A stretch of DNA of 64,000 nucleotides. Origin: Bartonella taylorii (lineage in GTDB: Bacteria; Pseudomonadota; Alphaproteobacteria; Rhizobiales; Rhizobiaceae). The stretch is from contig NZ_CP083693.1 of the NCBI RefSeq assembly GCF_023920105.1, forward strand, positions 823,001 to 887,000, written 5' to 3'. Below are positions 60,722 to 62,845 of this stretch, piece after piece. Each line of letters begins with the position of its first letter. Position 1 is the stretch's first letter. The notes below the pieces were generated by a model. It searched no databases. It was not told the origin of the DNA and saw nothing but the letters and a program-made list of their open reading frames with translations. Both the position numbers and the translations under genes were made by a program.

Positions 60722-61549
60722 TCAAACCATGCGAAAAAGATTAAAAGGTGTATCCATATCAGACATAAATGAACCAATTAAATAGAGAAGAAAAGCAGCT
60801 CCTACCAATCCATCCATACGATCCATAAATCCACCGTGTCCTGGCAATAAAGAACTAGAATCTTTAACAGAAAAATGCCTTTTTAGCCACGATTGCCCCA
60901 AATCACTCAATTGTGAGAAAATTGATAAAATAAGAGCAAGGAATAACATAAAAGAACTGGTTAAATTTATATCAAAAAATTGAAACGCAACCAATAAACC
61001 ACCAGAAACTCCAACAAATGTACCACCAATCGCCCCCGACCATGTTTTATTAGGAGAAAATTTTGGTGCTAATTTAGGACCACCAAACACGCGTCCACTA
61101 AAATATCCAGCAATATCTGTTCCCCACACTATAGCAAATAAGAAGATAACAACTCTGAACCCTAAGGTTTCATGCCCGCGTAAAAAGGATAAAGCCACGA
61201 CTGGAACAGATGTATATAAAAAACCAAAAAAAACCCAACCGCTCTTTTGCATAGGACCAATAGCTAATACTGCTGCCAAAATTACCAAAACACAAAAAAC
61301 CAGTGAAGCAGGTATATCTGATACCAAAAAAAAGCCAAACACCAAATAAAAAATACTCGCTAATATTTTTTGTGAAACACGCCACTTCTCTTTAGTGATA
61401 CTAATCCATTCATAAAGAATAAAACCGCCAATAACCCATACAAACAAAAAAAAGACAGTTCCTCCAAACCATGTTAAACATAAAGCAATAATGCCAAAAA
61501 CAAAAGCTGTCAGAATACGATAAACAAGATTAGACAAAATAATATCCAA
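60722..61549 (-). CDS. cdsA: Phosphatidate cytidylyltransferase
   Basis: Makes CDP-diacylglycerol for phospholipid synthesis in the inner membrane. It has 275 residues and about seven hydrophobic helices. The family signature is visible as KFSPNKTWSGAIGGTFVG followed by SDLGQSWLKRHFSVKDSSSLLPGHGGFMDRMDG (here split for clarity: SDLGQSWLKRH, then KDSSSLLPGHGG and FMDRMDG). The only start reaching full length is a TTG at 61549 without a clear ribosome site, or a second TTG five codons later. It probably once depended on coupling to the upstream uppS, which is now decayed. Confidence 0.92.
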   Translation of the reverse strand: MDIILSNLVYRILTAFVFGIIALCLTWFGGTVFFLFVWVIGGFILYEWISITKEKWRVSQKILASIFYLVFGFFLVSDIPASLVFCVLVILAAVLAIGPMQKSGWVFFGFLYTSVPVVALSFLRGHETLGFRVVIFLFAIVWGTDIAGYFSGRVFGGPKLAPKFSPNKTWSGAIGGTFVGVSGGLLVAFQFFDINLTSSFMLFLALILSIFSQLSDLGQSWLKRHFSVKDSSSLLPGHGGFMDRMDGLVGAAFLLYLIGSFMSDMDTPFNLFRMV

Positions 61550-61654
61550 ACAATATAAATAGAAAATATAAGCTCAAGAATTAACGCAAACAAAGAAATT
61601 TCCTACGCAGTATTTTTATATCCATACCTTTGCAAACTTTTTTAGAATTTATCA

Positions 61655-62250
61655 TAAGTTATCCAGTATACCAAGATAGCGCTTGTGAAATCAATAATCA
61701 GAAAAAATAGCTAAAAGTCTACGTATCAAGGTTAATCCTAAAATATATTTCCAAATATTCTATCAACCTTAAAAGCGAGAAAGCTGCTATTCACGACCTA
61801 TGTAAATTATGAAATCGAGATCTGATATTTGCTTCGTATAAAAGTAATGTTCTACTAAAATATCAGTCATCTAGAAATAAATTGGTAAAACAACGACCGT
61901 CTGTCCCATCCCACTACATCTTTCATAATGGAAAGTGAGAGCAAAACTAAAGCATTATCCTTCAAGCCATATTTCTCCCCAAACATCTACCATGGAATAT
62001 TTGAATGATCCCCAATAATGAAAATATTTTTATCATGCAACTTAACAAAAAACCTCCACTATCCTGTTAAATAACTTACTCCAACAGGAAGCTTCATCCA
62101 AAGCGTAGATAAAGACAATCTAAAAAATGTCCACCACTTCAAATCAATATTATTTTTACAGTATAGAATTGCAAAAAACGCATCTCCCCCCTACCTCATA
62201 TGCTATTATCAATAGCACACATAACCTCCATCTTTTTCCCATAAAAATGT
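61655..62250 (-). pseudogene. uppS: Decayed undecaprenyl diphosphate synthase gene
   Basis: The 735-bp gap between frr and cdsA has no open frame, yet the minus strand translates in pieces into UppS. Near 62240 one frame reads IFMGKRWR, matching the IIMDGN-x-RWA substrate motif. From 62160 to 61921 a single frame, broken only by TAG at 62059 and 61987, reads TFFRLSLSTLWMKLPVGVSY, then WRFFVKLHDKNIFIIGDHSN, corresponding to the LTLFAFSSENW...V-SYL...IR-IGD region. From 61861 another frame reads EHYFYTKQISDLDFIIYIGR then E-stop-QLSRF, matching the DLLIRT-GE-RxSNF motif. Position and size also fit uppS. Multiple stops and shifts make function impossible. Confidence 0.85.
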
Positions 62251-62284
62251 TATATGATATTCTTTTACTAGAATCAAAATCGCC

Positions 62285-62845
62285 TTAAACGTGCATAATC
62301 TCAGATTCTTTCACAGCCAAAATCTTATCAATATCAGCAATAGTCTCATCCGTGAGTTTTTGAATTTTCTCAGATAAGCCATGTGCTTCATCTTGACCAA
62401 TTTCACCTTCTTTTTCTAATTTTTTTAAATTATCCATGCCATCTCGGCGAACATGGCGGGTAGCAATACGCGCTTGTTCTGCATATTGATGTGCAATCTT
62501 TACAAGTTCTTTACGGCGCTCTTCATTTAATTCGGGTAAAGGAATACGTAAATTCATACCATCTGTGATAGGATTCAATCCAAGACCAGAGTCGCGAATA
62601 GCACGCTCTACAGCTCCTACCATCGTTTTATCCCACACTGAAACTGAAAGCATCCGTGGTTCAGGAACAGAAATATTTGCAACCTGATTTATATGTACAA
62701 CAGAACCATAAGCCTCAACTGTTAACGGTTCTAATAAACTGGTTGAGGCGCGCCCTGTCCGCAAACCACCTAATTCATGTTTAAAAGCGGAAATAGCACC
62801 ATCCATGCGACGTTTCAGATCATCCATAATCGATGTAATACTCAT
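62285..62845 (-). CDS. frr: Ribosome recycling factor
   Basis: Splits post-termination ribosomes together with EF-G. It has 186 residues, the universal size. Family stretches are [57 protein letters not shown] and RRELV-type [26 protein letters not shown]. It lies 31 bp downstream of pyrH on the same strand and is followed by the uppS relic. Confidence 0.96.

What the first reader, a model, noticed from the sequence alone, without database searches (positions are those of the whole stretch)
61655..62250. uppS is a dead gene in its conserved slot between frr and cdsA
Undecaprenyl diphosphate synthase makes the lipid carrier for peptidoglycan and is normally essential. Here the slot keeps its size (735 bp), but only fragments are readable: IFMGKRWR, then LSLSTLWMKLPVGVSYLTG, then HDKNIFIIGDHSN, then TKQISDLDFIIYIGRE. 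They occur in the correct order on the correct strand, separated by stops and shifts. The retained similarity suggests recent loss. The cell must have another prenyl transferase, such as a second uppS or a replacement acquired elsewhere, or the assembly is wrong over several sites (unlikely given the number of lesions).
Basis: partly seen in the sequence, partly recalled or inferred. Interest (0 to 1): 0.85.

Follow-up and report, generated by a model that had tools for sequence, protein, structure and literature searches.

The report
Bartonella lost an essential cell-wall gene
The gene for the enzyme that makes the usual lipid carrier of bacterial cell-wall building blocks is dead in this Bartonella genome and in most of its relatives, which still carry the next enzyme of the pathway, so the carrier must come from some other source.

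Summary
The 735-bp slot between frr and cdsA is a decayed uppS: 58% DNA identity over 661 columns to intact uppS in the same slot of a related genome (E 4e-21); 0 of 500 shuffles reach its fragment score. The loss is neither recent nor local. No PF01255 match was found in the window's 1.94-Mb genome; 15 of 71 genus genomes pass the cut-off, against 118 of 121 in the family and 385 of 388 in the class. In the 57-genome clade that holds the window, 55 slots are dead, two intact. Dead copies drift like four-fold sites; intact ones are constrained. At least two losses were independent. Yet the MraY family is matched in 70 of 71 genomes, the window genome has an open mur/fts cluster, and all 71 keep IspH and exactly two full-length trans-prenyl synthases. 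No replacement was found, but whole gene contents were not compared. Most likely carrier: all-trans polyprenyl phosphate; less likely, host-derived or made by an unknown enzyme. That step is inferred; a rate test gave it no support.

The parts
61550..62284 (-). uppS slot between frr and cdsA: decayed, neutrally drifting uppS pseudogene
61575..62153 (-). stretch with significant DNA match to the intact uppS slot L103 (G126): 58.1% over 661 columns, E 3.9e-21
62062..62190 (-). stop-free stretch with UppS profile match, positions 38-75
   Evidence: 4.3 bits
61990..62058 (-). stop-free stretch with UppS profile match, positions 88-107
   Evidence: 1.4 bits
61790..61870 (-). stop-free stretch with UppS profile match, positions 164-184
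   Evidence: 3.4 bits
62285..62845 (-). frr, ribosome recycling factor, open (upstream neighbour)
   Evidence: PF01765
60722..61549 (-). cdsA, cytidylyltransferase family, open (downstream neighbour)
   Evidence: PF01148
62877..63689 (-). pyrH by position and family (amino acid kinase family), open
   Evidence: PF00696
59558..60706 (-). rseP-type M50 protease, open; downstream of cdsA
   Evidence: PF02163

Best explanation
Shown: the slot is a dead, neutrally drifting uppS. No cis-prenyltransferase was detected in this genome or, above the cut-off, in 56 of 71 genomes of the genus, while the MraY family, IspH and a long-chain trans-polyprenyl diphosphate synthase are kept. Inferred: these bacteria build lipid I and lipid II on a carrier other than UppS-made cis-undecaprenyl phosphate, most likely the all-trans long-chain polyprenyl diphosphate already made for ubiquinone, dephosphorylated and accepted by MraY. 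If that ability arose in the ancestor of the 57-genome clade, uppS became dispensable there and decayed more than once, while two lineages (Bartonella sp. F02 and G126) still keep it intact and constrained.
For: Pseudogene. No PF01255 at E<=10 in the own genome, the same search ringing in 14 of 14 controls, four of them archaea, in 118 of 121 family genomes and 385 of 388 class genomes. Genus: 15 of 71 over the cut-off. Neutral decay in 8 of 8 dead-dead pairs that I chose; both intact-intact pairs constrained. More than one loss: a single clade of all 17 dead genomes rejected, p-AU 0.0035, 25 genomes x 3800 columns; no group-typical frameshifting indel in common between the A05 and ruminant-group copies. 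Kept: PF00953 in 70 of 71; in the window genome murE, murF, mraY, murD, murC, murB, ddl over an NCBIfam cut-off; mraY and murD readable in 25 of 25 genomes looked at. IspH 71 of 71, UbiA family 71 of 71, exactly two full-length PF00348 proteins in 71 of 71: one over the FPP-synthase subfamily cut-off, one nearest to solved octaprenyl/decaprenyl diphosphate synthases.
Against: Nothing here shows that the trans synthase's product enters peptidoglycan, and UbiA-family enzymes are kept, so the synthase has an ordinary reason to exist. MraY and the trans synthase evolve no faster on the stem or in dead lineages than eight other proteins. A site test put MraY above all 145 different-clade pairs (5 sites, maximum 4), but 9 of all 171 pairs reach it, one of the five sites is a gap artefact, and five proteins were tested. 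The trans synthase misses the octaprenyl equivalog cut-off (296 of 412 bits). Recalled: cis geometry of the first isoprene matters to many polyprenyl-phosphate enzymes. With flanking genes alone one loss was not rejected (p-AU 0.17). Weak sub-cut-off PF01255 matches exist in 7 of the 56 negative genomes, two in open frames (G131, G172).
Confidence: 0.5

Rival explanations
1. Scavenging: uppS-less Bartonella take polyprenyl or dolichyl phosphate from host membranes, blood or serum and use it as the glycan carrier.
For: The losses lie in the clade that holds the mammal-associated species, while the bee/tamiae-type clade keeps uppS (host labels recalled). Exogenous Und-P relieved carrier sequestration in S. 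aureus (PMC12826051, passage). B. henselae DNA fell over time in BAPGM without blood and rose with it up to day 10 (PMC10269525, passages).
Against: IspH and both trans synthases are kept in 71 of 71 genomes. R. parkeri, described as scavenging host isoprenoids, accumulates bactoprenols, which that paper attributes to UppS (PMC6854040, passages). In PMC10269525 the other medium, Brugge, gave more B. henselae DNA without blood through day 8 and less after day 9; a chemically defined medium is cited there (title only seen).
Confidence: 0.25
2. An unrecognised enzyme outside PF01255 makes a cis-polyprenyl carrier.
For: A missing step with the next enzyme family kept in 70 of 71 genomes is what a non-homologous replacement looks like; uppS was lost more than once.
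Against: No candidate was found; the profile search also rings in archaeal controls, and no extra full-length PF00348 protein is present. Whole gene contents were not compared, so this is open.
Confidence: 0.22
3. Assembly or sequencing error, or uppS on an unassembled replicon.
For: G134 shows a broken uppS and a broken UbiA-family gene, as error-prone assemblies do; G157 and G131, both counted among the 55 dead, also have broken UbiA-family copies, and ftsW and murG of G157 are incomplete.
Against: 55 of 57 slots of the clade are dead and drift like neutral sites in 8 of 8 pairs; none of 118 matching plasmid records reaches 60% identity.
Confidence: 0.01
4. The slot is now a functional non-coding element (RNA or regulatory spacer), which is why its size is kept.
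For: Slot length is 573-830 bp in 49 of 55 dead genomes.
Against: Eight of eight dead-dead pairs drift at the four-fold-site rate, within 0.012; five slots have shrunk to 420-457 bp and one has grown to 1132 bp.
Confidence: 0.02

Closest known systems
Undecaprenyl diphosphate synthase (UppS/IspU, PF01255)
   Same: Same slot between frr and cdsA, same strand, DNA and ordered peptide remnants of it
   Different: No open frame; neutral drift; no other PF01255 match found in the genome
Other bacterial carrier chain lengths (C50-P in mycobacteria, C45-P in Paracoccus; PMC12826051, passage)
   Same: The glycan carrier need not be C55
   Different: Those bacteria have cis-prenyltransferases (recalled); here none is found
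Rickettsia isoprenoid dependence on the host (PMC6854040, passages)
   Same: Host-associated alphaproteobacterium with a loss in the carrier-lipid pathway
   Different: Rickettsia lacks the upstream isoprenoid pathway; here IspH is kept and UppS is lost
Octaprenyl/decaprenyl trans-polyprenyl diphosphate synthase (IspB/DdsA type, PF00348)
   Same: One such protein in each of 71 genomes; could supply a long polyprenyl diphosphate
   Different: Known role is the ubiquinone tail (recalled); all-trans product; carrier role not shown

Membership tests
UppS pseudogene | Homology to uppS beyond chance, on the expected strand and in the slot | tested here: met
   E 3.9e-21 DNA match; 0 of 500 shuffles; frr-cdsA context
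UppS pseudogene | Disabling lesions and loss of constraint | tested here: met
   Longest open stretch 43 codons; 14 indels not a multiple of three against both intact copies over the whole slot (noise control: intact L111 shows 4 and L103 1 against L099); slot identity equals four-fold-site identity
Working cis-prenyltransferase elsewhere in the genome (PF01255) | Profile match over 27 bits | tested here: not met
   No match at E<=10
Peptidoglycan synthesis on a polyprenyl-phosphate carrier | MraY, MurG, FtsW and Mur ligases present and open in the window genome | tested here: met
   MurG 245.8 of 250.25 and FtsW 325.6 of 337.5 bits lie just under their cut-offs, and the ftsI product reaches no cut-off
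All-trans polyprenyl carrier pathway | Long-chain trans synthase present | tested here: met
   octaprenyl equivalog cut-off not reached (296 of 412 bits), so chain length is not settled
All-trans polyprenyl carrier pathway | Co-adaptation of MraY or the synthase where uppS is dead | tested here: inconclusive
   site test weakly positive for MraY only; rate test negative
All-trans polyprenyl carrier pathway | Carrier lipid in the cell is all-trans | not testable with these tools
   needs lipid mass spectrometry and NMR

The most novel reading that the evidence does not exclude
Most species of the mammal-associated Bartonella clade build peptidoglycan without any cis-prenyltransferase, on all-trans polyprenyl phosphate drawn from the ubiquinone pathway, an exception to a step treated as universal in wall-building bacteria.
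Probability: 0.45. Interest if true: 0.92.

Novelty: new variant of a known kind. Interest (0 to 1): 0.8.

Why it matters
Und-P synthesis is called essential at virtually every step (PMC12826051, passage) and UppS is pursued as a drug target (PMC6339874, listing). Either the geometry or source of the carrier lipid is more flexible than thought, or a new enzyme or uptake route exists. All three can be tested by lipid analysis of cultured strains. It also predicts that UppS inhibitors should fail on these species.

Tried and rejected
Assembly error: rejected. Recent loss: rejected. Second uppS in the genome or on a known plasmid: none found. Extra trans synthase as replacement: none; the few extra PF00348 hits in G121, G142 and G170 are partial pieces beside the FPP synthase. 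Loss of the peptidoglycan route: rejected for the window genome; for the genus only the MraY family was searched in all 71 (70 match, G158's match is partial, 225-codon frame). Loss of isoprenoid supply: IspH kept in 71 of 71. Co-adaptation by rate: no signal. UppP/BacA: found in 1 of 71, so it does not track uppS. Later decay of the ruminant-group copies: I first took their excess of slot over four-fold identity (0.062-0.068 against L099) as a sign of this, but the window's own excess is 0.065, so it is not shown; only A05 stands out (0.113).

Literature: searches bore on the absence of uppS in Bartonella or on carrier lipids; 25 was on media and 50 on MraY substrates. Listings, abstract openings and the passages I opened show no report of it; 24 listed 10 of 1,043 papers, 43 listed 12 of 14 and 51 listed 20 of 553, and most subscription journals are not held. 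I saw passages (no whole paper) of PMC7416641, PMC11118080, PMC8219968, PMC10269525, PMC12826051, PMC9116674, PMC6854040 and PMC3847144; all others as listings only.

Rows dropped or set apart: G182 (85% complete) has no frr match and so no slot; G134 is not among the 55 dead, is labelled dead (row L117) and uppS-bearing; ftsW and murG of G157 were left out, and those of G183 and G130 were not in the fetched stretch. 17 of the 55 dead slots have no significant DNA match to the intact genes and are called dead for want of an open frame and of a PF01255 match over the cut-off.

Full report
The window lies in a 1,939,282-base single-contig genome of the Bartonella type; its nearest relative in the set is Bartonella sp. 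DB5-6. Between frr (62285-62845) and cdsA (60722-61549) lie 735 bases without a gene. The longest stop-free stretch there is 43 codons.

The slot is a uppS remnant. Of 55 dead slots 38 match at E 1e-3 or better on the expected strand and none on the other; 17 show no such match. Window fragments searched apart hit a UppS profile in the right order; each is weak, but 0 of 500 shuffles reach the sum of the three best.

No other cis-prenyltransferase was found. PF01255 gives no hit at E<=10 in this genome while all 14 control genomes ring. In the family draw 118 of 121 genomes have it; the misses are this genome, a second Bartonella (G091) and a genome 76% complete. In the class draw (completeness 97% or more) 385 of 388 have it; the misses are this genome and two drafts, G531 and G548, both with a PF00953 match. 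In the genus 15 of 71 pass the cut-off, 14 in one piece and one (G134) in two. Another 7 have weak matches under the cut-off: three are the remnants in the slot (G157, G160, G167), two contain stops elsewhere (G135, G168), and two lie in open frames elsewhere (G131, 14.5 bits; G172, 15.3 bits); 49 have none. The two open-frame hits were not followed. G182, 85% complete, has neither uppS nor frr. Of 118 plasmid records that match the F02 UppS none reaches 60% identity.

History. I fetched the region around frr of 69 further genomes. The bee/tamiae-type clade, 13 genomes, keeps uppS, one copy (G134) broken. The other clade, 57 genomes, here called mammal-type (host labels recalled), has 55 dead slots and two intact ones, F02 and G126. 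In the eight dead-dead pairs that I chose, slot identity lies within 0.012 of the four-fold-site identity of flanking genes, for example 0.824 against 0.826 for window and DB5-6; the two intact pairs are constrained (0.770 against 0.538; 0.909 against 0.813). So dead slots drift freely. The window's copy was probably lost before its inner clade of 42 genomes diversified: all 42 are dead and five frameshifting indels are shared by all six members compared.

More than one loss. Bartonella sp. A05 pairs with uppS-bearing F02 (bootstrap 99), and its dead copy stays closer to the F02 gene than neutral sites do (0.665 against 0.552). For the other dead copies the same excess is smaller, from -0.005 to 0.068, the window's being 0.065, so their relative dates are not settled by it. 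A05 and the ruminant-group copies have no group-typical frameshifting indel in common, though pairwise A05 shares one with one of four ruminant copies; in that alignment an intact gene, L111, also shows four spurious ones. Other group pairs share 1 to 4 of 10 to 26, so common losses among them are not excluded. With 25 genomes and 3800 columns one clade of all dead genomes is rejected (p-AU 0.0035); dead genomes without A05 as one clade are not (p 0.10). With flanking genes alone neither is rejected (0.17, 0.33). So at least two losses; the best trees read as about four in this clade, with open forks.

What is kept. PF00953 (MraY family) is matched in 70 of 71 genomes, the miss being the incomplete G182; G158's match is partial. 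In the window genome an ftsI-like gene, murE, murF, mraY, murD, ftsW, murG, murC, murB and ddl lie in one cluster of open frames; MurG and FtsW fall just under their equivalog cut-offs and the ftsI product passes none. Of 25 genomes looked at, mraY and murD were readable in 25, ftsW and murG in 23, two of these genomes' stretches being too short and G157's copies incomplete. IspH is in 71 of 71, the UbiA family in 71 of 71, with broken copies in G131, G134 and G157. Exactly two full-length PF00348 trans synthases are in 71 of 71: in the window genome an FPP synthase and a long-chain enzyme whose best solved relatives are octaprenyl and decaprenyl diphosphate synthases. UppP of the BacA family is in 1 of 71. 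A B. bacilliformis protein named undecaprenyl-diphosphatase, 22.7 kDa, appears in PMC7416641 (passages); I did not test its family.

Mechanism, inferred. Lipid II needs a polyprenyl phosphate. The cheapest source without UppS is the long all-trans product already made for ubiquinone, dephosphorylated and accepted by MraY; it needs no new gene and fits repeated loss. Tests for co-adaptation gave little: in a site test MraY exceeds all 145 different-clade pairs but not all pairs (9 of 171 reach it), with a gap artefact among its five sites, and the trans synthase, FtsW, MurG and MurD do not stand out; neither MraY nor the trans synthase evolves faster on the stem or in dead lineages than the other eight proteins. 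Scavenging is the main rival: exogenous Und-P can relieve S. aureus (PMC12826051, passage), and blood was needed by B. henselae in one medium while the other gave more DNA without blood in the first days (PMC10269525, passages). An unknown cis enzyme stays open because whole gene contents were not compared. My odds: loss of uppS with the MraY step kept 0.97; all-trans carrier 0.45, scavenging 0.25, unknown enzyme 0.22, the rest other.

Novelty. UppS depletion lyses E. coli and virtually every step of the pathway is called essential (PMC12826051, passages). Within searches I saw no report of its loss in Bartonella; several lists were capped and most subscription journals are not held. I file it as a new variant of a known pathway whose carrier source is unknown.

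Noticed in passing
   Followed up: no
G134 C1:1136209-1136870 and C1:808965-809725; G157 C1:439587-440359; G131 C1:927255-927939: UbiA-family genes are broken in these three genomes, together with uppS in G134 although its sisters are intact; this suggests sequencing errors at least in G134.
   Followed up: partly
G142:C1:1752501-1753291; G121:C1:788268-788456; G170:C83:65754-66065: Partial PF00348 pieces, three of four with stops, lie next to the FPP synthase gene and look like decayed tandem copies of its later half.
   Followed up: no
G131:C1:1710193-1710540 and G172:C12:77445-77729: Weak PF01255 matches under the cut-off in open frames of 254 and 284 codons in two genomes without uppS.
   Followed up: no
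G531 and G548 (other families of the class): Two draft genomes lack PF01255 but have a PF00953 match; G531 has two trans-prenyl synthases, G548 one. Either assembly gaps or further cases of the same loss.
   Followed up: partly
L092 (G154); L105-L108 and L110: One dead slot has grown to 1132 bp, while five slots of the clarridgeiae-type group have shrunk to 420-457 bp.
   Followed up: no
genus Bartonella: PMC3847144 (passages) lists six Bartonella genomes with DXR type II, an alternative enzyme early in the same isoprenoid pathway.
   Followed up: no
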